From NCBI GenBank assembly GCA_016219275.1, contig JACRBM010000066.1:1-64000 (forward strand): DNA of 64,000 nucleotides, in the 5' to 3' direction. Made by a program: the position numbers and the translations under genes. The notes under the pieces were generated by a model. The model had not been told where the DNA came from, searched no databases, and saw only the letters and a list, made by a program, of their open reading frames with translations. The number at the start of each line of letters is the position of its first letter. Positions within the stretch are counted from its first letter, which is position 1. The DNA comes from Chloroflexota bacterium. GTDB taxonomy: Bacteria > Chloroflexota > Anaerolineae > UBA4142. Positions 4,082-30,838 of this stretch are shown here, piece after piece.

Positions 4082-4094
4082 GTGTGTCTCCCCT

Positions 4095-4850: not shown

Positions 4851-4860
4851 CGTCTTACTC

Positions 4861-6486: not shown

Positions 6487-6506
6487 GACGAATTCTTTTC
6501 CAAATG

Positions 6507-8233: not shown

Positions 8234-8255
8234 AGATTCCTCTTTTTCAGTTCGA

Positions 8256-8321: not shown

Positions 8322-8322
8322 A

Positions 8323-11540: not shown

Positions 11541-11546
11541 TTTCCA

Positions 11547-14180: not shown

Positions 14181-14193
14181 GAACTCCCTTTCG

Positions 14194-14298
14194 TTAATCC
14201 TTGGTGTATGGTCGGCGAGTGGCCACCGCAAGGAACATGAACGCAATGCCAACCTGGGAACTAACCAACAATAAAATGAATCTCATATCCTGAAACAT
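14194..14298 (-). CDS. 34-residue single-pass membrane peptide between cpaF and tadB
   Basis: The ATG follows the cpaF TAG stop with no gap (TAGATG) and is preceded by GGAGACG 7 bp upstream. The peptide is MFQDMRFILLLVSSQ and continues with a hydrophobic helix that ends in TRRPYTKD, i.e. a single membrane span with a positive end. It stops 13 bp before tadB. Tight spacing on both sides and a good ribosome site support translation. Too short for family recognition. Confidence 0.55.
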   Translation of the reverse strand: MFQDMRFILLLVSSQVGIAFMFLAVATRRPYTKD

Positions 14299-15693: not shown

Positions 15694-15696
15694 TGG

Positions 15697-16170: not shown

Positions 16171-16229
16171 CCTGCACTCCTTGTTTTGTCTCTCTCACTC
16201 ATTTCGCATCCTTCACCCATTTGACTTGC

Positions 16230-17603
16230 TTACGTGCCAAAGACAAGATTTGTTAGTTTCTTTCCCAGCCCTTCGCTCTTCTCACCACCCAACTTGCCAC
16301 GATGCGTCCAAACCTGGGTCACAGGCGGATAAAGTGTTGAAGCAATCGAGACGATGGCACGCGCAATCTCGCCGCGCGAATCAATCACGAGCGGGTAACC
16401 ACGATTGAGGGATGCCGTCACTTTGGGTCCACCATCGGGCACGACACCTACTTCGGGCATTTGCAGCGCATTCACGATGTCCTTGCGTGCGATGCCATGT
16501 TCGGGATGAAAACGATTCACGACGAGCCGGAATTTCTTTGCGTCGAGTTGCACGTGCTTGAACAAGGTTTCCATCACCTCGCCGGTTGCGCGTACGCTCG
16601 CGGCATCGGGGTTGATGACGACAAAGACATAGTTCGCATCGCGCAGGGCTTGCAAATGGAGTGCGGAATTCGTGTCCTGTCCTAAATCCATCACGACAAA
16701 GTCCGCCATGCTGCCGACGACACTCAAGAGTTCGTGCATGTATCCGCGTCCCAGTTCGCCTTGAAAGTATTCGTCGCCGCCCATGAACTGCTTGGGAATT
16801 CCGACGAGCACGCGGAGATTATTGCGAAACGGTGTCAGGTGTCCCTGCACTTCACTCGGCGACAAAACTGATTGTGCTGAGAGCATCCCAACATTCCCAT
16901 TTCCACGATACCCTTGCGTCGCCAAATTCATCTGGTAACGCCGCGCGAGCGCAGCGATATTTTTCGCAATCACCGATTCAGGAAAACCCAGATGAATGTG
17001 AGTGTTGCCACCTGCCATATTGGTATCGATGAGGACTGTGTTACGATTGGCAATGACACCTAGCACAGCGGCAAGGTTTTCCGAAATCGTGCTCTTACCG
17101 ACGCCGCCTTTCGCGCCCCACACGGCGACGGAACTTTTCTCCCAGCCATGCGTCGCAATGATCTGGGCAACCTGGGTTGAGACCTGGGGAATATAGGACG
17201 GCGACGAACGCTCGCGCAACGCATCCTGTACTGCTTGGTGTCCCATCGCGACGAGCGCACGGGCTTGCGCTTCGCCAATCGGCAGATCGACGTGTCCCTT
17301 GATGCCGAGCTGATAGAGTTTCGAGCCCCAATCGCCTTGGGGTGGAATCGCGCCGAGTGTGACAATCGGCTTGCTCTCGTGATGGTATAATCTCTGAATA
17401 TCGTTTGGCTCGAACGCGGGCAAGGCTGGATCGATCAATACGATGTCCGCATCGAGCGAAGTTGCATCGCTAACGATGCGTGAACCATCCTGCGTCCACG
17501 TGACGATCTCGATCCCATTCTGATTCCCAGGACCGAACATGGCATTCAGTTGTTGGACATCGCCCCATTGTCGCAGGGCTAGCAATAACTTGAGATTAGA
17601 CAT
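16230..17603 (-). CDS. cpaE: CpaE/TadZ pilus localisation ATPase
   Basis: The 457-residue protein has a receiver-like N-terminal domain (strand NLKLLLAL, later DIVLID and VTLGA) and a ParA/MinD-type ATPase domain from about 150. Walker A is KGGVGKS (165-171), with VLIDTN and VVMDLGQDT (Walker B) later. TadZ-like proteins choose the cell position of the pilus machine. It follows cpaB after 16 bp. Confidence 0.9.
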   Translation of the reverse strand: MSNLKLLLALRQWGDVQQLNAMFGPGNQNGIEIVTWTQDGSRIVSDATSLDADIVLIDPALPAFEPNDIQRLYHHESKPIVTLGAIPPQGDWGSKLYQLGIKGHVDLPIGEAQARALVAMGHQAVQDALRERSSPSYIPQVSTQVAQIIATHGWEKSSVAVWGAKGGVGKSTISENLAAVLGVIANRNTVLIDTNMAGGNTHIHLGFPESVIAKNIAALARRYQMNLATQGYRGNGNVGMLSAQSVLSPSEVQGHLTPFRNNLRVLVGIPKQFMGGDEYFQGELGRGYMHELLSVVGSMADFVVMDLGQDTNSALHLQALRDANYVFVVINPDAASVRATGEVMETLFKHVQLDAKKFRLVVNRFHPEHGIARKDIVNALQMPEVGVVPDGGPKVTASLNRGYPLVIDSRGEIARAIVSIASTLYPPVTQVWTHRGKLGGEKSEGLGKKLTNLVFGT

Positions 17604-17619
17604 AGTAAGGTTAGTTGTT

Positions 17620-18903
17620 CTAAACCAATCCGCTATCGCGCCGTCGCTTGCGAATGAATCTCACGACGGCGACAAAGAGCACCAGCAATACGACGCCACA
17701 GGTGAGAGGCAAGAGAAATGCACCGATGTCAAGTCCGGTCGGAATCGTCGCCGGCGGAACCGGCGTGGGTTTCGGGGGATTTGCATTCGCACGTGTTGGC
17801 TGTGCAGTCGGCTGTGCGCTGGAAGGCTGGGTCGACTGACCCATCCCAGGAACTGCGGTGGGTTGTGATTGAGCCGGTGCGACCTGGGTAGGTTGCGCCA
17901 TAATGGGTTGACCTTGACCGCCTGCAACTTGTGATCGTTCGCGCATCATCCACGCGAGTACGTCGTTGAACGTGATGCCGAAGGTGGGCGATTGTGCGCC
18001 ATTCGCGGATTCGGCTGTCTGTGCTGGGAGCAGGACGACGTGGACGCGCCCATTATCTTTGCCAAAGGTCAAAAGTTCGACGCTGGATCGCGGCACGAGC
18101 ACGGTAATGGTTTGAATGTCGCCTTGAATGTAGGCGGGCTGCGATGTGCCTTCTGACGATTGCGATTGACCGAAACTTCCACCCGATCCGGTGAATGCTG
18201 GGTTTGGAACCTGTTGAAAACGAACGGCGAGCACGGGCACGTTTTGAATTACAACCTTGTCAGCAGGTAGATTCATATCGGTTGGGCTAACGCTACCATT
18301 GTTAGTCATCGGATTCAGCGGCGATTGATTCGGCGGCAAAGTTGGAACAGGGCGCACTCCACTTGGTGGCGTCGGACCAAAAGAAACGATAGGCGATGCC
18401 GGTGTAGGAGAAGTCAGCAAATTCGAGAACGTCGTGTTGCTGCTGGTCGAAATGTTCCCAGGTGCAAGACCGACGACGAGATCGACCCAATCCCCGGGTG
18501 CGATCTGGCTCGGCGCGGTCTTGGGATCAACCGGAATCACCATCGCGACCTTGTCGGGATCAGTCATCACGAGCGCGAGGCGACTCGTCGCTTGCGGATT
18601 GCCAGAGGCGACAATCGCGCTTTTTCGTAATGGCTCACCCGCATGAATGTTCTCTAGGACGAACCCGCCGACGTACTGATCGCTCTCTTCGCGTTGAATG
18701 AGAGTTTGCGCGACCTGGGAATTGATGCGTTGGGCATCTATTCCAAGTGCATTCGGATCGAGCGTCGAGTAGGCGGGGATGTCCTGTACAGCAATGACGA
18801 CTGAGTACGGCGGCGGAGCCATCATGCCGCCGAGCATGAGGAAACCGACGAAGGCGAGACCGGCGAGTAGAATGCCGATGGTGAATGTGGCCGAACGAAG
18901 CAT
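17620..18903 (-). CDS. cpaB: CpaB/RcpC-like SAF-domain protein
   Basis: The 427-residue first gene of the operon has an N-terminal membrane helix (6-28), a SAF domain (VAVQDIPAYSTLDPNAL, about 36-54), an RcpC-like beta region interrupted by Pro/Ser/Thr linkers (about 170-225), a Pro/Gln/Thr-rich stretch (about 345-395) and a second C-terminal membrane helix. This second helix is longer than usual for CpaB and might span the envelope. GGAG lies 8 bp upstream of the ATG. Confidence 0.82.
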   Translation of the reverse strand: MLRSATFTIGILLAGLAFVGFLMLGGMMAPPPYSVVIAVQDIPAYSTLDPNALGIDAQRINSQVAQTLIQREESDQYVGGFVLENIHAGEPLRKSAIVASGNPQATSRLALVMTDPDKVAMVIPVDPKTAPSQIAPGDWVDLVVGLAPGNISTSSNTTFSNLLTSPTPASPIVSFGPTPPSGVRPVPTLPPNQSPLNPMTNNGSVSPTDMNLPADKVVIQNVPVLAVRFQQVPNPAFTGSGGSFGQSQSSEGTSQPAYIQGDIQTITVLVPRSSVELLTFGKDNGRVHVVLLPAQTAESANGAQSPTFGITFNDVLAWMMRERSQVAGGQGQPIMAQPTQVAPAQSQPTAVPGMGQSTQPSSAQPTAQPTRANANPPKPTPVPPATIPTGLDIGAFLLPLTCGVVLLVLFVAVVRFIRKRRRDSGLV

Positions 18904-18979: not shown

Positions 18980-19023
18980 ATTTTAACAGGCAAAAGTGAC
19001 TCGAAACTGAAACTAAACTGAAA
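18980..19023 (-). promoter_or_regulatory. SARP-type promoter A (Tad operon)
   Basis: On the minus strand three heptamers lie 11 bp apart: TTTCAGT (19017-19023), TTTCAGT (19006-19012) and the weaker AGTCACT (18995-19001), then exactly 9 bp, then TAAAAT (18980-18985). Known SARP activators bind 11-bp-spaced heptamer repeats whose last copy lies about 8 bp from the -10. The design is repeated at 23240-23283 and 27947-27990. Predicted transcript start is about 70 bp before cpaB. Confidence 0.7.
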
Positions 19024-19124
19024 GTAAGACCCAATTTTGAGGAAAATCGAAAAATTCCCGAAAGTTGATCGGCTGCCCGCGTCCAATCTGCCTTCATCGC
19101 GATCAAAACGACGCATTCAAAGTC

Positions 19125-19157
19125 GAAGGACGTAGACACGCTTGGTCTACGTCCTTC
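19125..19157 (-). terminator. Hairpin after regulator 1
   Basis: GAAGGACGTAGAC (19125-19137) and GTCTACGTCCTTC (19145-19157) form a perfect 13-bp stem with a 7-nt loop, 23 bp after the stop of the regulator gene. No good U-tract follows, so it may be a terminator of weak type or a 3'-protecting hairpin. It also insulates the Tad promoter A from read-through. Confidence 0.5.
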
Positions 19158-19179
19158 GGCTTCCTCATACTCAGGGAAG

Positions 19180-22100
19180 TTACTGGACGAATTCCGCTAC
19201 AGGCGGATCGTTGGCAATCTCTGCGTATACCGCTTGAGTTTCTTGGCTGGGCGCGCCGAGATTCAATTCTTCACGCAATACGTGCACACAGCGTTGATAC
19301 GTCCTCGCCGCGCCGGCGCGGTCGCCGGCTTTGAATTGAAGTCGCATCATGGCTTGATAGATGTCCTCGCGATCCCGATTGATGTCGATCAAAGTCTGGT
19401 AATAGCGCAGGGCTTGAGCGTAATCGCCGTGCCGTCCATAGATGCCTGCCAACGCTTGCAGCGTGTCCAAGTATTGCCGGCGCAATTGGGCGCGGATGCT
19501 TTGACACCAGTCGCCATACGATTCGGCAAAGAAATCACCGCGATAGAGCGCGATCGCCGCTTCGTACGCTTCGATGCGTTCGGAGATTCCTTTAGATGTG
19601 GCAGCGCGAGCAAGACAGTCGCTAAATTGCGCGACGTCATAACTCAAATTCAAATTGGGCTGCAGCGAATACACCGCGTCCTCATAGATTATGCCATTGG
19701 GAATGACACGCCGTAGGCGATAGGTGGTCGAATGAAAGACCTCGCTCGCCGCCGCGACGTTCTTGCCGGGCCAAAGTGCTTCCACGATTTCTTCTTTGCG
19801 TAATCCCTGGGGGTTTGCCAACAAGAGAAATAAAAGCTCCTTGGTCGCATGCGTTCCCCAATCGTCGAGCGTGATCTGACGATCTCCGAGCATGACGCGA
19901 CTCATGCCAAAAGCTTGGACGCTGAGCCGTACTGGCGCAGATGAGGTATTGCGATCCAGGGCAACCAGCGCCGCGTACAAGCGGTTGAAATAGTGGGGCT
20001 GAATTTTCTTCGATTGCGCGTACTTGATCAGCGGCAACAATTGAACGCGCTCGGCGACGATGAAGGGTATAGCCGTGGGTTCCAAGCCATCGGCTTGGCG
20101 CGCGAGTTCTTTCAGTTCCTTTTGCGCTTGGGCAAACTTTCGTCGTGCGAAATACGTTTGGGCAAGGTAAAGGCGCGCGCGGAGATAATCGCGCCGCATC
20201 GTCTTGAGTAGTTCTTGCGCGCGGTTCAGATGAAGGATCGCGTCGCTCATCCGTTTCTGCTCGCACGCCCAAATCCCCAACGCGGATTCCACAAGACCCA
20301 TCTCGTAATTGGATTGGTGCTTTTCGGCAGATTCCTTCGCCTCTTGCAAATAACTGGTGACCTTATCAGCATCACCGATCATGCGGCACGTCTCGCCGAG
20401 CGCGACCAATCCATACGTCAAGATGAATCCCTCCATGCAGCGACCCCGCTCAATCGCGTCGTGATAATATTCCATGGCGCGCGCCAGTTGATCCAGGTCG
20501 CGGTACACATCTCCCAGACTCGCGAGCGCAAACGCTTCACCGCGGCGCACGCCGTGTTGATGAGACCAAGCCCGCGCCTCTTCCAGCGTCGCCAGGGCAC
20601 GCGAATAATCACCCGCGATGTGCTGACCCACGCCAATGCTATTGAGCGTCATTGCTAGACCAGGAATGTTGTCCATTTGCTGCCACAGTTTAAGCGCTTG
20701 TTGATAGTAATCATCCGCCGTTGGATCGCCATGAATCCGCAAACACGTTCCAATCTCGTGATTGAGCCACGCGACACGCGTGGTATCGTCGAGGGCTTGA
20801 TAAAGTTCCAAAGCTTGCTCCAGTTCGCGAATGCATTGAGGATAAGCGCCCAAATGCACATGCGCCGTTCCCAGGATCCGATACGCGCGCGCTTCATCGG
20901 GCTGGGCTTGATGACGTTGTAAAACCTTGACGACCTTCAGGCACTCACCCACGGCGTCGCGATAGCGACCGCTGAGATTCCACAGCATCGCCCGCCACAC
21001 GATCACTTTCGCGACGGAGAGATCATCACCTTTCTGCTCGTAGAGTTCAATCGCGCGCGTATAGGCATTTTCCGCTTCCTGATTTTTTCCTGTCTCGGCG
21101 AAAACCTTGCCGCGCGTCACGACCAAGTCGGGATGCGCGGTTAAAATCTCAGAGGGTAAAGCATCGATCCATTCCGCCAGAACCGACCAGCGTCCGGCGT
21201 CGAACGTCGATTGAGCGATGCGTTCCGCCAAACGCGCCGCCGCGTCAAACATTTCGGCGGCGAGATAGTGAGAGATGGCTTGTCCCAGCGAAGAATCCTG
21301 GGATTCGAAAAACTCTGCCGCGCGGCGATTCAGCGTGCGCCAGCGCGCAGCATCTGTTTCGATCAAGCGCCGTCGCAGGAATTCGTGAAAGAGGTTGTGA
21401 TAGCGATAGAGTACGCTGCCCGTCTGATCGCCCAGTCGGATCACAAACAAATTCCGTTCCTCGATGGTGCGCAACAACTGGACGGTGTTTTGGATTTCAA
21501 ATACCTGATCGCAAACGACGGCATCCAAGCGACTGAAGATGGACGAGTCCAAGAGAAAGCGTTGAAGTGGCTCGGGCAGATGCGCCAGCGTTTCACTCGC
21601 CAGAAAACGGAAGACATTTTCCTTGGCGTCTTGCCCGTGAATCCGCTGTTGAAAAATACTGGGCCAGAGTTCCGGGGTGGTCAACAAAATGCCAGCGATC
21701 CAACCTTCCGACCGCTCGGTGAGATCGGCGGCTTGGTCGGGCGATAGTTCCATCTGGAAATTTTGTTTTACAAGCGCGCTGACCTCCTCGGCGGTGAAAT
21801 GTAGTTCGTCGTCGCCCAGCGCGGCGACGTGCTGATCGAGTTGCAGGCGCGTCAAATCCAGGCGCGTCGGCAAAGTGCGCGAGCAAATGATGAAATGAAC
21901 TTTGCCCGGCAGCAGGAAAAGCAGCGTGTTGAACAGATGATTGACCGGCTCTGAGTCGGCGACGCGGTGATAATCGTCGAAGATCAAGACAAAATGCTCC
22001 GAGCCGGTTCCTTGTAGTTCGGCGGCAAGCGCGCTGATCACCGTATCGAAATCCCGGTCGGTCGCGCTGGTGGACAGAGTCTTTTGAGCGCGTTCGCCCA

Positions 22101-22377
22101 CTTTCGGAAATCGTCCGTTGATCGAGGCGATGAGATTCTCCAAAAAGACTTGGGGATCGCGGTCCGATTCTTCCAGACTGTACCAACAAACCGGCAACAT
22201 CGTCTCGTGAGCAAAATCGATCAAGAGCGAAGTTTTGCCGGAACCGGCGGATGCGGACACAATCACCAGACGGCGATCCATGTGTTCGTGGAGAAAGCGC
22301 ACCAGGCGCGTTCGATGTAACAGTCGCTGGTTGCGACTGGGCAGTACGATCTTGCTAGTGGTAGGAAAGGTAGTCAC
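19180..22377 (-). CDS. STAND-TPR-SARP/BTAD transcriptional regulator 1
   Basis: This 1065-residue protein resembles MalT/LAL-type STAND regulators but ends in a SARP-type module. N-terminal AAA/NB-ARC-like ATPase: Walker A SASAGSGKTS (41-50), Walker B VLIFDDYHRV (about 130-139). TPR-like helical repeats follow from about 370 to 780. The C-terminus has an OmpR-like winged helix (ATKELLFLLLANPQGLRKEEI) followed by a BTAD domain (about 940-1050, Tyr-Arg-Gly-Asp-Phe, Tyr-Gln-Ala-Met-Met). SARP DNA-binding domains read direct heptamer repeats 11 bp apart, which fits the three promoters nearby. It is probably activated by binding ATP and an unknown ligand. Confidence 0.88.
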   Translation of the reverse strand: MTTFPTTSKIVLPSRNQRLLHRTRLVRFLHEHMDRRLVIVSASAGSGKTSLLIDFAHETMLPVCWYSLEESDRDPQVFLENLIASINGRFPKVGERAQKTLSTSATDRDFDTVISALAAELQGTGSEHFVLIFDDYHRVADSEPVNHLFNTLLFLLPGKVHFIICSRTLPTRLDLTRLQLDQHVAALGDDELHFTAEEVSALVKQNFQMELSPDQAADLTERSEGWIAGILLTTPELWPSIFQQRIHGQDAKENVFRFLASETLAHLPEPLQRFLLDSSIFSRLDAVVCDQVFEIQNTVQLLRTIEERNLFVIRLGDQTGSVLYRYHNLFHEFLRRRLIETDAARWRTLNRRAAEFFESQDSSLGQAISHYLAAEMFDAAARLAERIAQSTFDAGRWSVLAEWIDALPSEILTAHPDLVVTRGKVFAETGKNQEAENAYTRAIELYEQKGDDLSVAKVIVWRAMLWNLSGRYRDAVGECLKVVKVLQRHQAQPDEARAYRILGTAHVHLGAYPQCIRELEQALELYQALDDTTRVAWLNHEIGTCLRIHGDPTADDYYQQALKLWQQMDNIPGLAMTLNSIGVGQHIAGDYSRALATLEEARAWSHQHGVRRGEAFALASLGDVYRDLDQLARAMEYYHDAIERGRCMEGFILTYGLVALGETCRMIGDADKVTSYLQEAKESAEKHQSNYEMGLVESALGIWACEQKRMSDAILHLNRAQELLKTMRRDYLRARLYLAQTYFARRKFAQAQKELKELARQADGLEPTAIPFIVAERVQLLPLIKYAQSKKIQPHYFNRLYAALVALDRNTSSAPVRLSVQAFGMSRVMLGDRQITLDDWGTHATKELLFLLLANPQGLRKEEIVEALWPGKNVAAASEVFHSTTYRLRRVIPNGIIYEDAVYSLQPNLNLSYDVAQFSDCLARAATSKGISERIEAYEAAIALYRGDFFAESYGDWCQSIRAQLRRQYLDTLQALAGIYGRHGDYAQALRYYQTLIDINRDREDIYQAMMRLQFKAGDRAGAARTYQRCVHVLREELNLGAPSQETQAVYAEIANDPPVAEFVQ

Positions 22378-22485
22378 GTTTATTCATCCTTGATTTGATT
22401 TGATTCGAGCAAAGATTCCGAGGTCACATTGACCTGGAGTACGAACACACCATTGGCCGAAGATTCTTCGATAATGTTGCTGCGT

Positions 22486-22794
22486 TCAAGCGTCTGGCGG
22501 GTTCCATAATTCGCGGATAGCCTCTTGTAGTTGAGCGACCCGCTGGTTCATCTGGATCAATACGGCAAGAATGGTTCTGGCTTCACTGCCGGCAAGCTCT
22601 TCAACGCGGATGATTTCAAGTTTGCCCAGTCCTTCGTCCAACTGTTTCAGTACGTTTCCGACTGTGCCGCGCATGGCATTGCGCGCCATCGCTTCGGCGA
22701 TTGGACGCGGAAGCGTCGCATCAAATTGCAGGAGCGCCGTCATCCAGCGTTGCACATACGATTCTTGCTTGGAAGTCTTGCTTGGGTCATTCAT
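22486..22794 (-). CDS. Small helical protein upstream of regulator 1
   Basis: The 102-residue protein is almost all helical with two amphipathic segments (about 15-60 and 70-98, the second with a heptad-like Leu/Ile pattern: LIQMNQRVAQLQEAI), compatible with a coiled coil. It is the first gene after promoter B with a long leader, and it precedes regulator 1 by 108 bp, so they are likely co-transcribed. Family not recognised. A +1 frame after its stop stays open for about 40 codons, so a frameshift is possible. Confidence 0.55.
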   Translation of the reverse strand: MNDPSKTSKQESYVQRWMTALLQFDATLPRPIAEAMARNAMRGTVGNVLKQLDEGLGKLEIIRVEELAGSEARTILAVLIQMNQRVAQLQEAIRELWNPPDA

Positions 22795-22873
22795 TGTGTC
22801 GTGTCCTCAAATTGAAGAGTGTATCAAGAGAAATCGGAGAAGGTCTATTCTTCGATTCATTGCGATTTAGATT

Positions 22874-22917
22874 CGGCAGTGATCTTTGTCACTCGTGTCC
22901 GACAAAGATCACTGCCG
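22874..22917. repeat. Perfect 17-bp inverted repeat in the leader of the regulator 1 operon
   Basis: CGGCAGTGATCTTTGTC (22874-22890) and GACAAAGATCACTGCCG (22901-22917) form a perfect 17-bp stem with a 10-nt loop about 80 bp before the small gene. No U-tract lies on either side, so it is not a classical terminator. It could be an operator or an mRNA-stabilising hairpin. Confidence 0.6.
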
Positions 22918-23001
22918 AGGCACACTCGACTCACGCCAGGCAAAGTCTTAACCTGGGTGGAAGACATCCGCCAGCCTCAAAAACAATGGGTTACTGCGCG
23001 A

Positions 23002-23151
23002 TCATTTTTTCGTTTTCGTTTTGGAACTTGTCGTGCCAAAGCCGTCAGGACAATTTCTCCTGATCAACTCGTCGCATTGCCTTTTAAGAGTCAATGCGAA
23101 AAAGCGTTCGTTCCGGATGGTAGAGCGTCGTGCGGGCACTGCGTTGTGCAT
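23002..23151 (-). CDS. Small basic 49-residue protein (tentative)
   Basis: ATG at 23149-23151 lies 12 bp after AAGGAGG and about 80 bp after the predicted start of promoter B. The product (MHNAVPARRSTIRNERFF..., ending in KTKTKK) is basic and not recognised. It is the only frame with a ribosome site in this long leader. It may be a small protein or just an upstream open frame. Confidence 0.3.
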   Translation of the reverse strand: MHNAVPARRSTIRNERFFALTLKRQCDELIRRNCPDGFGTTSSKTKTKK

Positions 23152-23239
23152 GTTCGGTCAAGCCTCCTTGAGATAAAGTGTGGATCATGGGCGAGGCTTG
23201 CGGCGCTTCCAAGCATCGGCGTCGAGTATCTTGGTTGCG

Positions 23240-23283
23240 ATTATACGAGCCGCGACTGACAGAAAACTGAAACTTGACTGAAA
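23240..23283 (-). promoter_or_regulatory. SARP-type promoter B (regulator 1 operon)
   Basis: On the minus strand TTTCAGT (23277-23283), TTTCAGT (23266-23272) and TGTCAGT (23255-23261) lie exactly 11 bp apart, then 9 bp, then a perfect TATAAT (23240-23245). It points at the small genes and regulator 1, suggesting self-activation. Leader length to the first larger gene is about 440 nt. Of the three copies, this is closest to the consensus. Confidence 0.72.
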
Positions 23284-23761
23284 GAACGGCTCGATTTGGC
23301 TTGAATAGGGCGCTTCGTCGCGCAAAACTCGACGACTGCCTATATGGGTGATGATTTTCGATCTTCGGGAGATTGCGTGAGAGAAAAGAGGAAAATTGGA
23401 GGAGGCGCAGGGGAGTACGTCCGCACGTGGATTCCTTCCGTGCGGCATGTCGAGCGTGAGGAATTATCTCGACCGCTCTTCGCGTTCAAACTACAAACGC
23501 GAATAATATCGACGTACTTTAGATCAACTCAGAGCATCACCTCCGTATGCCAGGTCGATCTGTCAATGCGTACTGACAGATCGCCACCATTCGCTGTCAG
23601 CCATTCCTCTCATCCAATCTACTTTAGCGCATCGAGACCTCCATAATTTTGAAACTGGATCGCACATCTCACCGGAAGGGTGACCATGACGACATCTAAC
23701 GCGTCAAGATCACGACCATTTTCCGATGGCGCATCTTGACGAGTTCCATACATTCAACGCG
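23284..23761. other. 478-bp gap, no gene seen
   Basis: Both strands are empty of convincing frames. A perfect hairpin CGATCTGTCA (23556-23565) with TGACAGATCG (23574-23583) is present, and CGTCAAGAT/ATCTTGACG with a long loop lies just past the stop of the 23762 gene. Neither has a U-tract. They may end transcription of the small genes to the right. Confidence 0.4.
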
Positions 23762-23986
23762 TTACGCGCGTTTTTCCAAAATCCATCGTGCGATGGCTTG
23801 CACGAAAGAATCGAAATCGGCGGCGTGAATTTGGGAAAGCATTTCTTTTTCTTCTTCCGTCAAATCGAACCGCTCTGTGTAATATCCTGCGGCGGCGGCA
23901 CGTAATGGGTCGCGCACCAACAGTTTTCTAAACTGCTGATCCACTATCCCGGCGCACACGAGACGATTTAGATCTCGCTGGCTCAT
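23762..23986 (-). CDS. Os1348/NHLP-clan-like small protein (RiPP-leader-like)
   Basis: The 74-residue protein reads as a Nif11/NHLP-like helical leader: an N-terminal helix with VDQQFRKLLVRDPLRAAAAGY (about 16-35), then the FDLTEEEKEML turn typical of Os1348 or Franean1_4349-type precursors, and a final helix. A classical core peptide rich in Cys, Ser or Thr is missing, so it may be a leader-domain protein only or may use a separately encoded core. A 45-residue membrane peptide gene lies just before it. Confidence 0.5.
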   Translation of the reverse strand: MSQRDLNRLVCAGIVDQQFRKLLVRDPLRAAAAGYYTERFDLTEEEKEMLSQIHAADFDSFVQAIARWILEKRA

Positions 23987-24111
23987 TTGAAACTCCCGCA
24001 GCCGACGAGAATCGCAGGATCGAAGCGACGATTTTCATCAGCCCAACCCGTTCGCCCCGGCAATTCGCCGCTTGCAGCGGAAAACCGGACCACCAATAAT
24101 TGCGCGCTTGA

Positions 24112-24249
24112 CTAACAGCGAATCTGACCACAAGACGCGATTTCTGTTGCGACGACAGCCAGCGTCCGAGTTGCAAAAAGGATCATGGTGATCAGCCAGA
24201 CCGTACGCGGCGAGTTCAACCATGTATAGGCACACTTGAAGTAATTCAT
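24112..24249 (-). CDS. 45-residue membrane peptide ending in Cys-rich tail
   Basis: It reads MNYFKCAYTWLNSPRTVW, a hydrophobic helix (VWLITMILFATRTLAVVA) and ends SCGQIRC. The ATG at 24247-24249 follows a strong GGAGG ribosome site that is buried in a hairpin. It precedes the Os1348-like gene by 125 bp on the same strand. It may be a small exported or membrane peptide. Not recognised. Confidence 0.5.
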   Translation of the reverse strand: MNYFKCAYTWLNSPRTVWLITMILFATRTLAVVATEIASCGQIRC

Positions 24250-24251
24250 TT

Positions 24252-24285
24252 GGATGTCCTCCGAATTCATTTTTCGGAGGCATCC
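24252..24285 (-). promoter_or_regulatory. Hairpin that buries the ribosome site of the 45-residue peptide gene
   Basis: On the minus strand GGATG-CCTCCGAA (24285-24273) pairs with TTCGGAGG-A-CATCC (24265-24252), 13 base pairs with one bulged A and a 7-nt loop. The GGAGG of the pairing arm is the Shine-Dalgarno sequence, 8 bp before the ATG. Translation would require opening of this stem, as in RNA thermometers or small-RNA-controlled leaders. Confidence 0.5.
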
Positions 24286-24325
24286 TACAAAAACCTTGTT
24301 TCCAAATTGTTGACAAGATAGGCAC

Positions 24326-24358
24326 AAAAAAAGAGTGGACTGTCTTCACAGTCCACTC
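24326..24358 (-). terminator. Intrinsic terminator of regulator 2
   Basis: On the minus strand GAGTGGACTGT, loop GAAG, ACAGTCCACTC (11-bp perfect stem, 24358-24333), followed by TTTTTTT (24332-24326). It is 49 bp past the stop of the regulator gene. Confidence 0.9.
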
Positions 24359-24406
24359 CACACACGTTCGTCGAATTTACTTGGCGCGTTTACAAATCAA
24401 CCTCAC

Positions 24407-27400
24407 TCAGCGATTCATTTTGAGGATGTCCTCGTAGAGCGATTGGATGTCGCGCCCAGGTTGCATGTTCATTTCCTCATGAAGGAGTTGTTTCAGCTTT
24501 TCGTAAAGGGCAATTGCCGCCGCGCGGTCACCCATCGAGACGTACGTCTCCATCGCACGTTTCCACGCGGTTTCCAAGAATGGCTCCACTTCGGTTGTTT
24601 TCAAAAACGTAGAGAGCGCAGAACCCAGGTCGCCGACTTCCAAATATGCCTCACCTAATGGCATCAGCGCCTCGTTATACACAAGCTTCAATCGTTCGCG
24701 TTCGTTGAGTGCCCAATGCGCGTCCAGGCGTTCCAGATATGGGCCGCGATACAATTCCAAGATCGGCTGCAAGCGCGCGATACGAGCTTGGGCGCTGAGC
24801 GCCAGATGCGCATGCGCCAAACCGCGTTCCAACTCTTGGACATCGTACCATTGATTCTCCGGTGCCAGCACGTATTGACCATTGACGAGTTGCACCGGAC
24901 AAATCGCTTTACGAATCCGCGACACCGCAATGCGCAGCGCACCGTCGGCGCGTTCGGCGGACCAATCAGGCCAAATGAGATCGGCAATTTCCTCTCGCCG
25001 CGCGCCTTGCGGTAAACGGCTGAGGAGAAAGAAGAACACGTCTCTGACTTGAGTACGGATTTGCACAACTTCCGAACCGTCGACGACGATCTCTTCCTGT
25101 CCCAGAGTCCGAATGGTAAGCGAAGGAACATTTGTCGTGGTCGAGTCCGGCTCGGCGATCAGAATCGGCTGCATTTGTCCAAAAATCCGTTTGAAGCGTC
25201 GCCCGATGGGTTTCAGTCCGCTGGCAAATCGCAACGTGTCGATCGTCTGCCGACCTTCCACTGCTAAAAAGTGATCGTACCCCAAGGTTTCGACCAGGGC
25301 ATCCACTTGGATCAGATGACGTTTAGCTTCATCCTCACGCTTTTGAATGCGACAGAGATGCGCGAAATGATATTCCGCCACAGCTTCCAAATGCTTGTTC
25401 CCAGCGCGCCGAAAGGACTGGGCGGCAGCGTCAACCAATTTGTAAGCCGATTTGAATGCTCTTCGGTCACTTGCCAATAATCCCTGGGACAACTTCAACT
25501 GCCCGCGTGCTACAAGCGATTTGAGATCGATTCCTTCGGCTGCCAATTGAAACCACTCGCGCGCGCGTTCGGGCGAACCCAGCAGACGTTGCATGTGTCC
25601 GAGAGCCACGCGATTGTAAAAGATGAGCTGTGCTTCTTGCCCCATTTCAGCGGCTCGCAAACTTTCTGTATAGAACTCCATGGCGCGAGCATATTGACCC
25701 TGGTCGCGCCACAGATCGCCCAACGACGAAAGAACCGCAGCTTCAATTCTCGCCCAGCCGCCCTGCCTTGCCTTGACCAGCGCGTCTTGGAGAACGTGTT
25801 CCGCCGCCTCGATTTCGCCTCTGAAGAGATAAGCCATCCCGAGGTTGTTGAGTGTGTTTGCCGCGGCATTGGAATCGTCCAGGCGTTCCCATAAAGCCAA
25901 TGCTTCTTTATAGCGGTCGATGGCTTCGGCGATGCGACCGCTTGCCCGCGCTACAATCCCCAAATCGGAATTCACGTTCGCTTGACTGACTAAATCATCG
26001 CCGACCTGGAAAAGTATGCGCGCTTGTTTCAAGTCGGCGTACGCTTCCTTTAGTTTTCCAAGATGATATTTCGCTAGACCGCGCAAATGCAGACTCGCCG
26101 CATGCAAATGCTCGCGTGCCGGGCGATTCCTGACCTTGCCGAGTAACGCCACAAGCTTTCGACTTTCGGCGATGCACTCGCGATAGCGACCCAGGAATCG
26201 CAAAACGGTGGCTTTGAACACGAGCTTGTCGCCGGCGGAAGCATAGTCGCCGGCCCGGCGAAAACCCCGGATGGCTTGATCGAAGAGCAGCACGGCTTGT
26301 TCCTGCTCGCCCTGAGCCATACAAATTTTCCCTTTGAGGCTCAACAAATGCGGATTCGCCAATACCTTGCTTTCCGGCAAGATTTGAACCCAATGCGTCG
26401 ACCTGGCAATGTCCGAGCGTTTGCGTAGCGACGCTTCGACGGATTGCAAAATCACAATCGCTTCTTCGGTACGTCCGAGAGCAAGATAGATTTCGACAGC
26501 GCGATCCCATTGTCCCTGCTGTTCGTTCAGCCGGGCACACGCCAATTCAAGTTGTTCAAACCAAGCCGGGTGTTCGCTCTTCAAACGCGTACGCAAAAAA
26601 TCGCGGAGGAGCGGATGATAGACAAACAGATCATTTGCTCCCTCCAAGCGCGTAAGGAAGAGTTGTTGCTCCCACACGATTTCCAAATAGGTTTTCGAGT
26701 CAGCTAACCCAGGGAGCTGGTCGAGAAGGTCCGGCGAGAGTGGCTCGAGCACCGCGGAGCCAAGCATGAAACGACGCACCTCCTCCGGTTGGCGCGCCAA
26801 GATTTGTTCGGCGAAATAGTCAAATAAGGAGCCGGTGATTTCCGGCGCGGTCAACACATCTTCCACGAGGGAACGCCAACCGGCGCGTTGTCCCATCAAC
26901 AACAACGCCGTGATCCATCCAGCCGTGATTTGCGCTAGCTCTTGAGCGCGGGACGTAGGAACCGTCAGTCCATAGTTTTGTTGAACGAACGCTTGTATCT
27001 CCGGCGCGGTGAAGCACAACTCGTTGATTCCGATTCCATCTATCTGCCCGCGCGCACGCATCAAGATTTCGTCGGGCAAGTCGACGAGCACCCGCGAGTT
27101 GATGAAGAAATGACAATCCTCGGCAGCGTATCGAATGAGCCACGCGATCAGTTGACCGATCATTTCATTTTCGATCACGTGACAATCGTCCAAGACCATA
27201 ACGACATGATCGGGCAAACGAGCCAGCTCATTTGCCAGCAGAACGACGATGGATTGCAGAGATTCTTTAGTCTCTCTGGATTGCTCCAACGCCGCCAGCG
27301 CCTGAGCGCCGAACTTGGGAAAATGAACTCGAATCGCTTCGACGAGGTACGCCAGAAAGACATGCGGGGTGTTGTCGAACTCATCGAGGGTGAGCCACGC

Positions 27401-27634
27401 AACGGGGAAATCAACTTCATGCGCCCAGTCCACGAGCAGACTGGTCTTACCATAACCTGCCGGCGCAGAAATCAGGAAAACCTGTTTGTCGACTTGAGCG
27501 TGGAGGTGATCGATCAAACGCGGACGGCGCAATAGTTCGCGTCGGCGTTGAGGAAGACGAGTCTTGGCAATGGCTAAAGATGACGTGCGTCGAGTCATTC
27601 CGCTCTCATTATCTAGGCATGGTTGCGCGGCCAT
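24407..27634 (-). CDS. STAND-TPR-SARP/BTAD transcriptional regulator 2
   Basis: The 1075-residue protein has the same plan as regulator 1: N-terminal AAA-type ATPase with Walker A SAPAGYGKTS (about 55-64) and Walker B VVMVLDDCHVI (about 145-155), TPR-like repeats (about 370-800), OmpR-like DNA-binding wing (VRDVFFFLLSRLPQGARREEIADLIWP, about 865-890) and a C-terminal BTAD (about 950-1070). It shares plan but not close identity with regulator 1. It is transcribed from its own promoter and ends at a strong terminator. A second in-frame ATG at residue 13 could be the real start. Which of the two regulators reads the heptamer promoters is unknown. Confidence 0.88.
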   Translation of the reverse strand: MAAQPCLDNESGMTRRTSSLAIAKTRLPQRRRELLRRPRLIDHLHAQVDKQVFLISAPAGYGKTSLLVDWAHEVDFPVAWLTLDEFDNTPHVFLAYLVEAIRVHFPKFGAQALAALEQSRETKESLQSIVVLLANELARLPDHVVMVLDDCHVIENEMIGQLIAWLIRYAAEDCHFFINSRVLVDLPDEILMRARGQIDGIGINELCFTAPEIQAFVQQNYGLTVPTSRAQELAQITAGWITALLLMGQRAGWRSLVEDVLTAPEITGSLFDYFAEQILARQPEEVRRFMLGSAVLEPLSPDLLDQLPGLADSKTYLEIVWEQQLFLTRLEGANDLFVYHPLLRDFLRTRLKSEHPAWFEQLELACARLNEQQGQWDRAVEIYLALGRTEEAIVILQSVEASLRKRSDIARSTHWVQILPESKVLANPHLLSLKGKICMAQGEQEQAVLLFDQAIRGFRRAGDYASAGDKLVFKATVLRFLGRYRECIAESRKLVALLGKVRNRPAREHLHAASLHLRGLAKYHLGKLKEAYADLKQARILFQVGDDLVSQANVNSDLGIVARASGRIAEAIDRYKEALALWERLDDSNAAANTLNNLGMAYLFRGEIEAAEHVLQDALVKARQGGWARIEAAVLSSLGDLWRDQGQYARAMEFYTESLRAAEMGQEAQLIFYNRVALGHMQRLLGSPERAREWFQLAAEGIDLKSLVARGQLKLSQGLLASDRRAFKSAYKLVDAAAQSFRRAGNKHLEAVAEYHFAHLCRIQKREDEAKRHLIQVDALVETLGYDHFLAVEGRQTIDTLRFASGLKPIGRRFKRIFGQMQPILIAEPDSTTTNVPSLTIRTLGQEEIVVDGSEVVQIRTQVRDVFFFLLSRLPQGARREEIADLIWPDWSAERADGALRIAVSRIRKAICPVQLVNGQYVLAPENQWYDVQELERGLAHAHLALSAQARIARLQPILELYRGPYLERLDAHWALNERERLKLVYNEALMPLGEAYLEVGDLGSALSTFLKTTEVEPFLETAWKRAMETYVSMGDRAAAIALYEKLKQLLHEEMNMQPGRDIQSLYEDILKMNR

Positions 27635-27809
27635 GAATAGGGAGAAGAACCAATCCAGGCAGCGGATGATCGTCGTGAGGGCATTGTGTCAATTCGCTCT
27701 TCTGGTTGAGAAGCCGCGCAATTATTTTCGTCAGAGCGCGATGAACAAAGAAAGAGGGTGATGCAGGGGTAGTCCGAATAGCAACAGCAGGAAAGCACAC
27801 GTAAAAAAC

Positions 27810-27860
27810 ATTATAGCCCGGATAGTCATTTCGTCAACGTTCCAACGCGTTCCAACGCGG
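27810..27860 (-). promoter_or_regulatory. Sigma-70 promoter of regulator 2 with 10-bp direct repeats
   Basis: On the minus strand TTGACG (27832-27837), 16-bp spacer, TATAAT (27810-27815). Immediately upstream of the -35 are two adjacent direct repeats, TCCAACGCGT and TCCAACGCGG on the plus strand (27841-27850, 27851-27860). One helical turn apart, they may bind a regulator on one DNA face. The leader is about 170 nt. No TTTCAGT heptamers are found here. Confidence 0.6.
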
Positions 27861-27946
27861 AAATTTTACCAGTCGAGTAACCGCAGCCCCATCTAGTTAA
27901 GGCAATGGAGCACGAAATCAAAGGATTTTTCCAAAACAGGTCTTCC

Positions 27947-27990
27947 TTTCAGTCATTCTTCAGTTTTCTGTCAGAATCGCCTGCTATAAT
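27947..27990 (+). promoter_or_regulatory. SARP-type promoter C (Cas2/VapD-like gene)
   Basis: TTTCAGT (27947-27953), CTTCAGT (27958-27964) and TGTCAGA (27969-27975) lie 11 bp apart, then 9 bp, then TATAAT (27985-27990). Same geometry as promoters A and B. Predicted start is near 27997, about 120 bp before the gene at 28115. Confidence 0.7.
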
Positions 27991-28114: not shown

Positions 28115-28450
28115 ATGTCGGAAAAATTTCTAGTTGCCTGGGATTTCTCGAAAAAGGCAAATGCAACATTTTACAGAATCGTCAGGGACGAGTTCGGTAC
28201 ATCTCACCCCGGTGGCGCGTACGAAATGATTCAACGCAGCGTCGCCATGTGCTGCGATGATTTTACGGCGAGTCGCATGGTCGCGTTAGCTGAATACTTT
28301 GGCGCGCAAGTGAGATACTTTGCGATTCGGCGAACTGACCTCAATGGCGAAATGCTCGACAACGCGCGTGCGTTCGTGGATCGCATTCTACATCAGCGTC
28401 TCAGTCATCGCGGACGACGTCCTTCGGCGAAAGCCAGGAAACGAATTTAA
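28115..28450 (+). CDS. Small Cas2/VapD-like (ferredoxin-fold) protein of unknown function
   Basis: 111 residues. The start has AGAGAAGAAG upstream, and a longer frame covers the promoter and is rejected. The sequence begins with a strand-Asp-helix pattern (FLVAWDFSKKANATFYRIVRDEF), then a QRSVAMC strand, a helix (SRMVALAEYFGA) and a strand QVRYFAIRR. Cas2 and VapD share a beta-alpha-beta ferredoxin fold with Asp at the end of strand 1 and a Q-x-S-V-type second strand, so I suspect that fold. No cas genes or CRISPR repeats are in the window. Tail is basic. It is the only gene of the right flank under a TTTCAGT-type promoter. Confidence 0.55.
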   Translation: MSEKFLVAWDFSKKANATFYRIVRDEFGTSHPGGAYEMIQRSVAMCCDDFTASRMVALAEYFGAQVRYFAIRRTDLNGEMLDNARAFVDRILHQRLSHRGRRPSAKARKRI

Positions 28451-28715: not shown

Positions 28716-30221
28716 ATGGTTACTCAAGTCGCGCTTTATGCGCGCGTCAGCAGCGAACAACAAGTCGAAGGGTTTAGTATCGAGGCGCAGCTCCGCGCCA
28801 TGCGCGAATTTGCCGCCGCGCAACATTGGACGATCTTTCGGGAGTACGTCGACGAAGGTTATTCGGCGAGCACCGCCGAGCGTCCTCAATTCCAAATCCT
28901 GTTACGCGATGCGAGCGTGCGCCTTTTCGACGGTCTGCTCATTCACAAACTGGATCGCCTTTATCGCAATGTGAGCCAGCTCCTCGAAATGGTCGATACG
29001 CTGGAGAAACAAGGCATCGCCTTGATTTCCGTACTCGAGCGCATCGATTTCAGCACGCCCTCCGGCAAAATGCTGCTCACCAACATCGGCATGATCAGCG
29101 AGTTTTACTTGAACAATTTGCGCGAAGAGACCGTCAAAGGCAAATACCAACGCGCGCTCTCGGGTCTATGGAATGGCGATATTCCTTACGGTTATTGCAA
29201 GGGCTTGTGCAGTCGCTGCGACGATCCCAATGGAAAAGGCTATTGTCCGGATTATGGACAGTCAGACAAGACCGTGGATCGTCGCTTGATCGCGCATCCC
29301 AAGGATAGCGTTGGGTTGAGTCTCGCATTCACCTGGCACTGCGCGGGCAAATTATCAGACCAAGACGTGACCGATCAACTCAATCGGTGTGGCTATCGCA
29401 CGCGTTGTAAATTGACGAAGAAACCCGATCCCATCCACCCCGGCGGCTCTAAACCGTTTTCGAAAGACACGGTTCGCGCGATGCTCAAGAATCAGTCCTA
29501 TCTGGGTTTGGTGAAATACAAGGGGCAATTACTGCAAGGCACGCATCCGCCACTCATCACGCGCGAAATATTCGAACAGAGCCAGGAGGTACGCAAACGC
29601 TGGCATCGGAATGCATCGCAGCGACGAGCCGCGCCCAGGGTGTTCATGCTGACCGGCGTTTTGCGCTGCGCGTATTGCCATTTCCCGATGCGCGGTACGA
29701 CCAATCCCGATGGCACACGCTACTATCGGGATACGGCAAGGGAATACAGCAAGTTGTGTCCGCGTCACGGCATGTTGACAGCGGAAGAACTGGAGTTGGA
29801 GCTGCTGGATCAATTGCATCGCGTCCGCTTGCCGGACGTGTGGCGAGAGCGCATCATGCAATTGGCGACGGCTACACCGGAGCAATCCCAGCGCGAGGAA
29901 AAGCGACGTCTGCTCAATTCACAACTGGAGCGCCTGCAAAAGCTATTTGTGCAGGGCGATATGGCGGAAGAAGATTACGATAGGCGGCGCGAAAAGATTC
30001 GAAATGAGTTAGAAGAAATCCTCGCCCAGGAGCCTGCGATCATCAAGCAAGCGACGCGTGTGCCCAAACGATTGAGTAAATACATGGATAGCGCGAGCCC
30101 GCTTGATCGGAAACGGATTGTCGGTATGTTGTTGCGCTCGGTCCATGTGGGGAAGAATATTGAACGCATCGAACCGCGCAAGCCGTTCATGGAATTGTTT
30201 CCAGGAGATCGACGTACCTAG
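28716..30221 (+). CDS. Large serine recombinase 1
   Basis: The 501-residue protein is a serine site-specific recombinase. Resolvase domain (1-145) with YARVSSEQQ, where S12 is the nucleophile; Recombinase domain (about 165-290, with WNGDIPYGY and KDTVRAMLKNQSYLG); zinc ribbon (CAYC...); coiled-coil region (about 385-440). These enzymes integrate or excise phages, ICEs or cassettes. It has a good purine-rich ribosome site. No matching attachment sites could be found by eye. The excisionase-like gene that follows supports a mobile element. Confidence 0.92.
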   Translation: MVTQVALYARVSSEQQVEGFSIEAQLRAMREFAAAQHWTIFREYVDEGYSASTAERPQFQILLRDASVRLFDGLLIHKLDRLYRNVSQLLEMVDTLEKQGIALISVLERIDFSTPSGKMLLTNIGMISEFYLNNLREETVKGKYQRALSGLWNGDIPYGYCKGLCSRCDDPNGKGYCPDYGQSDKTVDRRLIAHPKDSVGLSLAFTWHCAGKLSDQDVTDQLNRCGYRTRCKLTKKPDPIHPGGSKPFSKDTVRAMLKNQSYLGLVKYKGQLLQGTHPPLITREIFEQSQEVRKRWHRNASQRRAAPRVFMLTGVLRCAYCHFPMRGTTNPDGTRYYRDTAREYSKLCPRHGMLTAEELELELLDQLHRVRLPDVWRERIMQLATATPEQSQREEKRRLLNSQLERLQKLFVQGDMAEEDYDRRREKIRNELEEILAQEPAIIKQATRVPKRLSKYMDSASPLDRKRIVGMLLRSVHVGKNIERIEPRKPFMELFPGDRRT

Positions 30222-30289
30222 CGAATAATTCCAAATCAACTTCAAGTGAGTGGAAGCGCACCTTTACAAACGAGAGAATCACACAAACT

Positions 30290-30318
30290 TTGCGCTGGCA
30301 GGACAAATGTTGTAGAAT
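30290..30318 (+). promoter_or_regulatory. Promoter of the excisionase-like gene
   Basis: TTGCGC (30290-30295), 17-bp spacer, TAGAAT (30313-30318). About 28 bp before the ATG of the small HTH gene. Confidence 0.45.
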
Positions 30319-30346
30319 CGATTCAAACCTGGGAGATTACAGATCG

Positions 30347-30565
30347 ATGGCTGAGGATTGGATCACAACACGCGAAGCGGTGAAATTGAGCCAGTATCAT
30401 CCAGACCACATTCGTATACTAGTGAGAAGCCGCCGCATCAAAGCGCAAAAATTTGGCGAGGTTTGGCAGATTAGTCGGAAGAGTCTGCTGGCTTACTTGC
30501 AAGAACAAGAGAAGCGCGGCGAAAGGCGCGGGCGTAAGCCATTTGACCTGAGACGGAAAAGTTAG
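30347..30565 (+). CDS. MerR/excisionase-type helix-turn-helix protein
   Basis: The 72-residue protein begins MAEDWITTREAVKLSQYHP and continues HIRILVRSRRIKAQKFG, then VWQISRKSLLAYL: the winged helix of HTH_17/excisionase type, with a highly basic end. Internal ATG at 30347 is chosen because the longer frame runs through the promoter. It follows the recombinase, where an excision-directionality factor would be expected. Confidence 0.7.
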   Translation: MAEDWITTREAVKLSQYHPDHIRILVRSRRIKAQKFGEVWQISRKSLLAYLQEQEKRGERRGRKPFDLRRKS

Positions 30566-30571
30566 TATAAT
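30543..30571 (+). promoter_or_regulatory. Promoter of RNA element 1
   Basis: TTGACC (30543-30548), 17-bp spacer, TATAAT (30566-30571). It overlaps the end of the helix-turn-helix gene and points at the RNA element and the degenerate resolvase. Confidence 0.6.
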
Positions 30572-30577
30572 CGTGGC

Positions 30578-30731
30578 ATAAGATAATTTAATCCCAAAAC
30601 ATGCCGCGCAAATGTTACCAGCACTTGCACGGCACTAACCCAACCCACCGAACGAGACGGCGGGCGGGCTGACCCTATTTTACCACAAACCAGGGCAACC
30701 TGCTAGAACGGCGGGCTGCCCTTTTCGTTTT
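30578..30731 (+). ncRNA. RNA element 1 with intrinsic terminator (candidate)
   Basis: A strong promoter is followed by about 154 nt of non-coding sequence that ends in a terminator. The core 30635-30686 (CTAACCCAACCCACCG... and GGGCGGGCTGACC) closely matches 49839-49889 before serine recombinase 2: both have CTRACCCA, a CCACCG-type hairpin, GGGCTG and TATTYTAYCAC. Two separate loci with the same parts next to resolvase-family genes suggest a conserved small RNA or leader. Function unknown. Confidence 0.45.
30693..30731 (+). terminator. Intrinsic terminator of RNA element 1
   Basis: GGGCAACCTGC (30693-30703), loop TAGAACG, GCGGGCTGCCC (30711-30721), then TTTTCGTTTT. Two non-Watson-Crick positions, strong otherwise. 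Confidence 0.7.
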
Positions 30732-30838
30732 CTCGTGGGGAGGTAAATCGGCAAGAGAAAATCTTGAAACGTTCCATATATTCAAGCAAGCCAGAACGCG
30801 AGTTTGCACAACAACCATGAGCAAAAGGAGCCAATCAC

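What the first reader, a model, noticed from the sequence alone, without database searches (positions are those of the whole stretch)
18980..27990. Three promoters with triple 11-bp-spaced TTTCAGT heptamers and a fixed 9-bp gap to the -10, beside two SARP-domain regulators
Promoters at 18980-19023 (Tad operon), 23240-23283 (regulator 1 operon) and 27947-27990 (Cas2/VapD-like gene) each have three heptamers at an exact 11-bp period and exactly 9 bp to TATAAT or TAAAAT. SARP-type activators are known to use 11-bp-spaced heptamers just upstream of the -10, and both large regulators here end in OmpR-like plus BTAD domains. This is evidence for one regulon that links a Tad pilus and a small ferredoxin-fold gene.
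Basis: partly seen in the sequence, partly recalled or inferred. Interest (0 to 1): 0.87.

Follow-up and report, generated by a model that had tools for sequence, protein, structure and literature searches.

The report
SARP-type operators controlling a Tad pilus
A bacterium of the phylum Chloroflexota appears to switch on its own large regulator gene, a Tad pilus operon and a small Cas2-like gene through three near-identical DNA switches of the kind known from antibiotic regulators of Streptomyces, and related genomes show the switch sequence and the regulator's DNA-reading helix changing together.

Summary
Three promoters carry three heptamers at exact 11-bp period, with 9 bp to the -10. A composite pattern allowing 3 mismatches occurs exactly three times in the 6.16-Mb genome, at these places; the reversed control gives none. 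A relative (G002) has all three sites before the same three genes, with a shifted heptamer (TTTTGGT/TGTTAGA for TTTCAGT/TGTCAGT). The regulator's C-terminus is predicted to fold like AfsR (TM 0.74-0.76 by query length), and the operator register and TTCAG core match the Streptomyces afs box.

REG1 (19180-22377) is the likely reader: its recognition helix changes with the motif, its relatives carry TGTCAGT/CGTGAGT pairs directly downstream without any REG2, and REG2 relatives carry another operator (GGTAACA type) before an Os1348/NHLP-type peptide gene. In 51 related regulators, 11-bp heptamer pairs with a -10 lie downstream in 19, against 1-5 at control periods other than 12; one helix type uses 12 bp.

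So this is a known operator type (SARP) in a new phylum, on a MalT-like STAND regulator with the SARP domain at the C-terminus, controlling a pilus rather than an antibiotic. Binding and activation are inferred, not shown.

The parts
18980..19023 (-). SARP-type operator-promoter S1 (three heptamers, 11-bp period, 9 bp to TAAAAT), before the Tad operon (cpaB ATG 77 bp past the -10)
   Evidence: positional counterparts before cpaB in G002, G010, G007, G006
23240..23283 (-). SARP-type operator-promoter S2, before a 49-aa ORF, orf102 and REG1 (positive autoregulation predicted)
   Evidence: counterparts in G002, G010, G007
27947..27990 (+). SARP-type operator-promoter S3, before the 111-aa Cas2-like gene
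   Evidence: counterparts before Cas2-like copies in G002, G010 (several), own contig C63, and a G007 remnant
19180..22377 (-). REG1: MalT-like STAND NTPase + TPR + C-terminal SARP domain (OmpR-type winged helix + BTAD); proposed reader of S1-S3; recognition helix FHSTTYRLRR
   Evidence: Pfam BTAD 3e-21; MalT model 2e-63 over residues 8-534; AlphaFold model pLDDT 93 matches AfsR
22486..22794 (-). orf102: conserved 102-aa protein of unknown function between S2 and REG1
   Evidence: 47-54% identical in G002, G010, G007; no Pfam or NCBIfam match
23002..23151 (-). 49-aa ORF with an AAGGAGG ribosome-binding site, first ORF after S2 (not shown to be conserved)
   Evidence: Sequence read directly
2697..18903 (-). 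Tad pilus genes downstream of S1: CpaB/RcpC, CpaE-like, CpaF, TadB/TadC, three TadE-like, a second SAF-domain protein, ATPases
   Evidence: Pfam; 71-97% identical and in the same order in G010
28115..28450 (+). 111-aa Cas2/VapD-like ferredoxin-fold protein
   Evidence: Beta-alpha-beta-beta-alpha-beta model, pLDDT 70; top Foldseek hits mostly Cas2, E 0.017; family in only 4 of 396 genomes of the class
24407..27634 (-).
   Evidence: Pfam BTAD 6e-20; MalT model 1e-68; identity; own operator type
24282..24314 (-). Candidate REG2 operator: GTCAACA ATTT GGAAACA, 9 bp, TAGGAT
   Evidence: Same place and flanks as GGTAAGA ACCT GGTAAAG N9 TAGGAT in G002 and G010; own C59 paralogue has GGTAACA ACCT GGTAACA N9 TATACT
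24112..24249 (-). 45-aa small ORF after the candidate REG2 operator; a counterpart starts at the same place in G002 and G010
23762..23986 (-). Os1348/NHLP-clan RiPP-precursor-like peptide
   Evidence: NCBIfam NF038399 1.4e-9, just under its cut-off; all 9 aligned members match
28716..31231 (+). Large serine recombinase (28716-30221) and a resolvase-domain protein (30839-31231) downstream of the Cas2-like gene; recurrent neighbours
   Evidence: Pfam; same neighbours beside copies in own C63 and G010; serine recombinases beside the G002 C357 copy

Best explanation
S1-S3 are SARP-type activator operators fused to promoters without a recognisable -35 (S1 and S3 have an extended TGn -10). Its MalT-like ATPase/TPR part would sense an unknown signal; its C-terminal SARP domains would then bind head to tail, one per heptamer. 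The two heptamers next to the -10 take the place of the Streptomyces afs box (about -40 to -19), where a SARP dimer contacts sigma region 4 and the RNA polymerase core. REG1 would thereby raise its own operon (S2), the Tad pilus operon (S1) and the Cas2-like gene, perhaps with its recombinase neighbours (S3). REG2 is a sister activator with its own heptamer before the Os1348-type peptide. Shown here: the sites, their uniqueness, their conservation, the predicted AfsR-like fold, and the change of motif together with the helix. Inferred: binding, activation, signal, operon extents.
For: (1) Three sites only in 6.16 Mb, all within 9 kb. (2) G002 has all three before the same genes (Cas2-like, orf102-REG1, cpaB) with a shifted heptamer; G010 has two plus sites before further Cas2-like copies; G007 three of type A, G006 two. 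(3) Mapped on AfsR (PMC10936776) the DNA-contacting helix positions 87/88/91/92 are H/S/Y/R in REG1 of this genome and N/T/S/R in G002 and G010, and the heptamer changes C4 to T4, the base pair AfsR T88 contacts. (4) G007 has type-A sites and no REG2 relative at E<=1e-110. (5) REG1 relatives (32-44% identical) with no REG2 beside them have TGTCAGT or CGTGAGT pairs between regulator and next gene. (6) REG2 relatives have GGTAACA-type pairs. (7) Over 51 regulators, 11-bp pairs downstream 19, upstream 2 of 46, inside the gene 0 of 52; Markov shuffles mean 1.2, maximum 4. (8) Helix and operator distances correlate after allowing for the rest of the protein (partial r 0.35, 0 of 2000 permutations). 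(9) SARP fold match to AfsR, E 3e-11.
Against: No experiment. This genome also has one type-B site, before a second Cas2-like gene on contig C63 beside a cut-off REG2 copy, but no type-B REG1 was found in the assembly. REG1 in G007 is interrupted by an insertion, so its sites may be relics. REG2's helix also differs between types A and B. A second Cas2-like copy in G002 (C357) has no such site. The third heptamer of S1 is poor. Related genomes are not independent, and the operators in the correlation were picked by hand.
Confidence: 0.8

Rival explanations
1. REG2, or both regulators jointly, reads S1-S3; REG2 is divergent from the Cas2-like gene and S3 lies between them.
For: REG2 is beside S3; own contig C63 has a REG2 copy divergent from a Cas2-like gene with a type-B site and no REG1 nearby; REG2's helix also differs between types A and B.
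Against: G007 has three type-A sites and no close REG2; REG1 relatives elsewhere have TGTCAGT-type sites with no REG2 beside them; REG2 relatives have GGTAACA/GGTTAGG pairs downstream of their own gene.
Confidence: 0.13
2. The heptamers are boxes for a PhoB/OmpR-type response regulator; the E. coli pho box is also built of TGTCAT-like repeats at 11-bp period close to the -10 (own knowledge, not checked here).
For: TGTCAGT resembles the pho-box half site; SARP and PhoB share the OmpR-type winged helix.
Against: A global phosphate regulator would have boxes elsewhere, yet the composite pattern occurs only here; the motif follows the REG1 lineage, and sites sit beside REG1-type genes across the class.
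Confidence: 0.04
3. The repeats are a chance or mutational tandem repeat without regulatory role.
For: Short sequences; one heptamer of S1 is poor.
Against: Uniqueness with the -10 included, conservation before the same genes with concerted motif change, period and position controls.
Confidence: 0.02

Closest known systems
AfsR and the afs box of Streptomyces coelicolor (PMC10936776)
   Same: OmpR-type winged helix plus BTAD on a STAND/TPR protein; 11-bp direct repeats at a fixed distance from the -10; TTCAGC (-38 to -33) matches the TTCAG core; T-27 corresponds to position 2 of the third heptamer if the -10 is placed at -12
   Different: AfsR has its SARP domain at the N-terminus and controls antibiotic production via afsS; here the domain is C-terminal behind a MalT-like head, there are three heptamers, and the target is a pilus; Chloroflexota
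PimR (SARP-LAL) main operator in the pimM promoter (PMC5930380)
   Same: Three heptameric direct repeats with 4-bp spacers
   Different: Heptamer CGGCAAG, N-terminal SARP, antifungal cluster; operator reported not to overlap the -35
MalT (STAND activator)
   Same: N-terminal NTPase matches the MalT model (E 2e-63, below its curated cut-off)
   Different: MalT has a C-terminal LuxR-type helix-turn-helix (own knowledge); here a SARP domain takes its place
Cas2 / VapD (HP0315)
   Same: Ferredoxin-like model; top structural hits are Cas2 proteins, VapD at rank 36
   Different: Weak match (E 0.017, TM about 0.42); no Pfam match; no Cas1 or CRISPR noticed beside it

Membership tests
SARP regulators | OmpR-type winged helix followed by a BTAD domain | tested here: met
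   BTAD 3e-21 and 6e-20; REG1 model matches AfsR at TM 0.74-0.76 and EmbR at 0.75-0.76 by query length
SARP regulators | DNA-contacting residues of the recognition helix, notably the Arg at AfsR position 92 | tested here: met
   Alignment to AfsR: R92, R94 and W74 equivalents kept in REG1 and REG2; positions 87, 88, 91 vary with motif type
SARP regulators | Direct repeats at 11 or 22 bp, the 3' repeat about 8 bp from the -10 | tested here: met
   11/11 bp and 9 bp from the 7-mer end; same register as AfsR T-27 (PMC10936776)
SARP regulators | Binding of the repeats and activation of transcription | not testable with these tools
   No wet experiment
AfsR-type large SARP | SARP domain at the N-terminus, NOD and TPR after it | tested here: not met
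   BTAD lies at residues 914-1054 of 1065, STAND at the N-terminus
MalT | C-terminal LuxR-type helix-turn-helix | tested here: not met
   C-terminus is BTAD; MalT model covers residues 8-534 only and misses its cut-off
Cas2 (protein 28115-28450) | Cas2 fold and family match | tested here: inconclusive
   Ferredoxin-like model at pLDDT 70, best hit a CRISPR-associated protein at E 0.017; no Pfam or NCBIfam match
Pho box / PhoB regulon | Several boxes across the genome, at phosphate genes | tested here: not met
   Composite pattern only at S1-S3; phosphate genes were not looked up one by one

The most novel reading that the evidence does not exclude
A large family of STAND-TPR-SARP activators in Chloroflexota each drives the gene next to it through its own tandem heptamer, with a readable code between recognition helix and heptamer (FHST.YR: TGTCAGT/CGTGAGT; FNTT.SR: TTTTGGT; LR.T.TRIRK: GGTAACA; FKN.IYRLR: TGAAGCC at 12-bp rather than 11-bp spacing), so regulons can be predicted from sequence; here the code links a Tad pilus to a Cas2-like/serine-recombinase module.
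Probability: 0.55. Interest if true: 0.75.

Novelty: new variant of a known kind. Interest (0 to 1): 0.62.

Why it matters
The SARP regulators described in the papers found here are activators of antibiotic clusters in actinomycetes. This would be a SARP regulon in another phylum, with the domain order turned round and a surface pilus as target. The searches found no paper on SARP operators in Chloroflexota, but only open-licence papers were searched. Because motif and recognition helix differ together between close relatives, the specificity of the SARP winged helix becomes directly testable with a handful of residues, and the many orphan regulators of this kind (17 BTAD regions in this genome) become candidates for target prediction.

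Tried and rejected
Two heptamers with 2 mismatches are background genome-wide (21 against 20), so only the composite pattern was used. The C7:11290 near-match (1 mismatch) has no good -10 at the right distance (L073 scan). Looking for S1-S3-like sites before REG2 itself, or near the C59 REG2 copy, gave nothing; the motif-free scan then showed the GGTAACA type. Some 11-bp repeats in the motif-free scan of the own genome (L130, L134, L138, L142) were judged too weak to use. A second Cas2-like/Tad locus in G002 (C357) shows no SARP-type site.
Full report
Setting. The window is part of contig C66 of a 6.16-Mb, 97.9% complete assembly. Named relatives of REG1 in the genome collection place it in Chloroflexota, with Anaerolineales MAGs among the closest.

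Observation. The three sites are exactly as described. Each has heptamers at positions 1, 12 and 23 and a -10 nine bases after the third. In the whole genome the pattern TTCAGT-N5-TTCAGT-N5-GTCA-N11-TATAAT with up to three mismatches matches these three sites and nothing else, and its reversed control matches nothing. Two heptamers alone with two mismatches are background, so the evidence lies in the full architecture. S1 and S3 also have an extended -10 (TGn before the hexamer); S2 does not.

Genes. S1 precedes cpaB of a Tad gene cluster on the minus strand. S2 precedes a 49-aa ORF, a conserved 102-aa ORF and REG1. S3 precedes the 111-aa protein and, 266 bp after it, a large serine recombinase. 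REG1 and REG2 match the MalT model over the N-terminal NTPase, then TPRs, then BTAD. The model of REG1 residues 802-1065 (pLDDT 93) matches AfsR first (E 3e-11, TM 0.74-0.76 by query length) and EmbR next.

Conservation. In G002 (contig C205) the order Cas2-like, REG2, Os1348-type peptide, orf102, REG1, cpaB is kept at 53-82% identity, and sites stand before the Cas2-like gene, orf102 and cpaB. The -10-to-start distances are close for cpaB (77, 73, 72 bp in this genome, G002, G010) and orf102 (446, 478, 476 bp). The heptamers have shifted in all three sites towards TTTT[AG][GT]T and TGTTAGA. G010 has the same shifted motif before orf102-REG1 and the Tad operon and before two Cas2-like copies; a further copy, whose search match runs over a stop codon, has a site whose register is broken by one base. 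G007 has three type-A sites, one before a remnant of the Cas2-like gene. G006 has two, one before cpaB and one on a contig with a serine recombinase and an excisionase-like helix-turn-helix but no Cas2-like gene. Reversed controls over the 14 genomes give 0 hits for type A and 2 for type B.

Which regulator reads the sites. Four lines favour REG1. First, between type A and type B its recognition helix changes from FHST/FHNA..Y to FNTT..S. On the alignment to AfsR, numbered so that W74, R87, T88, S91 and R92 fall as in PMC10936776, the changes are at positions 87, 88 and 91, all DNA-contacting in AfsR; T88 contacts the base pair at -36, which corresponds to heptamer position 4, the position that changes from C to T. 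Second, G007 has type-A sites but no REG2 relative at E<=1e-110, although its REG1 is interrupted by an insertion. Third, REG1 relatives at 32-44% identity, with no REG2 beside them, have TGTCAGT or CGTGAGT pairs 32-195 bp (in one case 543 bp) after their own stop codon, before the next gene, often an Os1348-type peptide. Fourth, REG2 relatives have GGTAACA ACCT GGTAACA (own C59), GGTTAGG AATT GGTTAGC (G030) and GGTAAGA ACCT GGTAAAG (G002, G010), each nine bases from a -10; the window has a degraded counterpart at 24314-24282 in matching flanks.

General test. For 51 regulators of this family, the 1.2 kb downstream was scanned for any pair of 7-mers with at least 6 of 7 identical and a -10 eight to ten bases later. 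At period 11 there are 19 (14 perfect); at periods 8, 9, 10 and 13-16 there are 1-5 (0-1 perfect); Markov shuffles give 1.2 on average. One of the 19 (the window REG2 row) is S2 itself. Upstream regions give 2 of 46 and gene interiors 0 of 52. Period 12 gives 11; seven of these are from regulators with the helix FKN.IYRLR (L086-L091 and L171) whose repeats read TG[ACG]A[GT]CC-TGTTT, which looks like a genuine 12-bp variant. A Mantel-type test gives a partial correlation of 0.35 between helix and operator distances, 0 of 2000 permutations; the operators were chosen by hand, so this is supportive only.

Another SARP in the same genome. Contig C37 has an AfsR-like gene with the domain at the N-terminus (L127 213-3227), and the divergent region before it carries three exact TCCCTAC at 11-bp period 10 bp before TATAGT, with the opposite strand showing TAGGGAG repeats before TATAAC.

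Mechanism. In AfsR, two SARP protomers bind side by side on the two 11-bp repeats between -40 and -19 and contact sigma region 4 and the polymerase core (PMC10936776). The position of heptamers 2 and 3 here is the same to the base if the -10 is set at -12. PimR's operator also has three heptamers with 4-bp spacers (PMC5930380). The reading that REG1 activates S1-S3 in this way is an inference from anatomy. The signal sensed by the STAND/TPR part, the role of orf102 and the reason for coupling a pilus with a Cas2-like protein and recombinases are unknown.

Open points. This genome has a type-B site before a second Cas2-like gene (C63) but no type-B REG1 in the assembly. The gene may be on missing sequence, the site may be read by the adjacent REG2 copy, or it may be an orphan.

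Literature. Searches for SARP/BTAD in Chloroflexota and for SARP with Tad pili found no description of this; the library holds only open-licence papers.

Noticed in passing
L127 (own genome C37) 3330-3380: AfsR-like N-terminal SARP gene (213-3227, minus) with three perfect TCCCTAC repeats at 11-bp period and promoters on both strands in the divergent region before it: a second heptamer type in the same genome.
   Followed up: partly
L139 (own genome C63) 1-2183: Second REG2-like/Cas2-like divergent pair with a type-B operator (TTTTGGT CATT TTTTATT TTCT TGTTAGC, 9 bp, TACAAT at 1751-1794), although no type-B REG1 is in the assembly.
   Followed up: partly
L086-L091, L171: Relatives with helix FKN.IYRLR (mostly Anaerolineaceae MAGs) have tandem TGAAGCC/TGCATCC repeats at 12-bp, not 11-bp, period downstream of the regulator.
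   Followed up: partly
window 28115-31231; L139 1881-5789; L186 10489-15454; L185 5166-7478; L209 3787-6533: The Cas2-like gene recurs beside large serine recombinases (in some copies also an excisionase-like helix-turn-helix and a resolvase-domain protein), which looks like a mobile or phase-variation module; L209 has the module and a site but no Cas2-like gene.
   Followed up: partly
window 24112-24249 (-): 45-aa ORF MNYFKCAYTWLNSPRTVWLITMILFATRTLAVVATEIASCGQIRC just before the Os1348-type peptide, with counterparts in G002 and G010.
   Followed up: no
L057 (G007) 1831-6457; L190 5049-5228: REG1 is interrupted by an insertion carrying a 445-aa ORF on the other strand, and the Cas2-like gene is a remnant: the regulon seems to be decaying there.
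   Followed up: partly
L072 (own genome C59) 7003-11397: Third REG2-like regulator (53%) with a GGTAACA operator and an Os1348-type peptide after it.
   Followed up: partly
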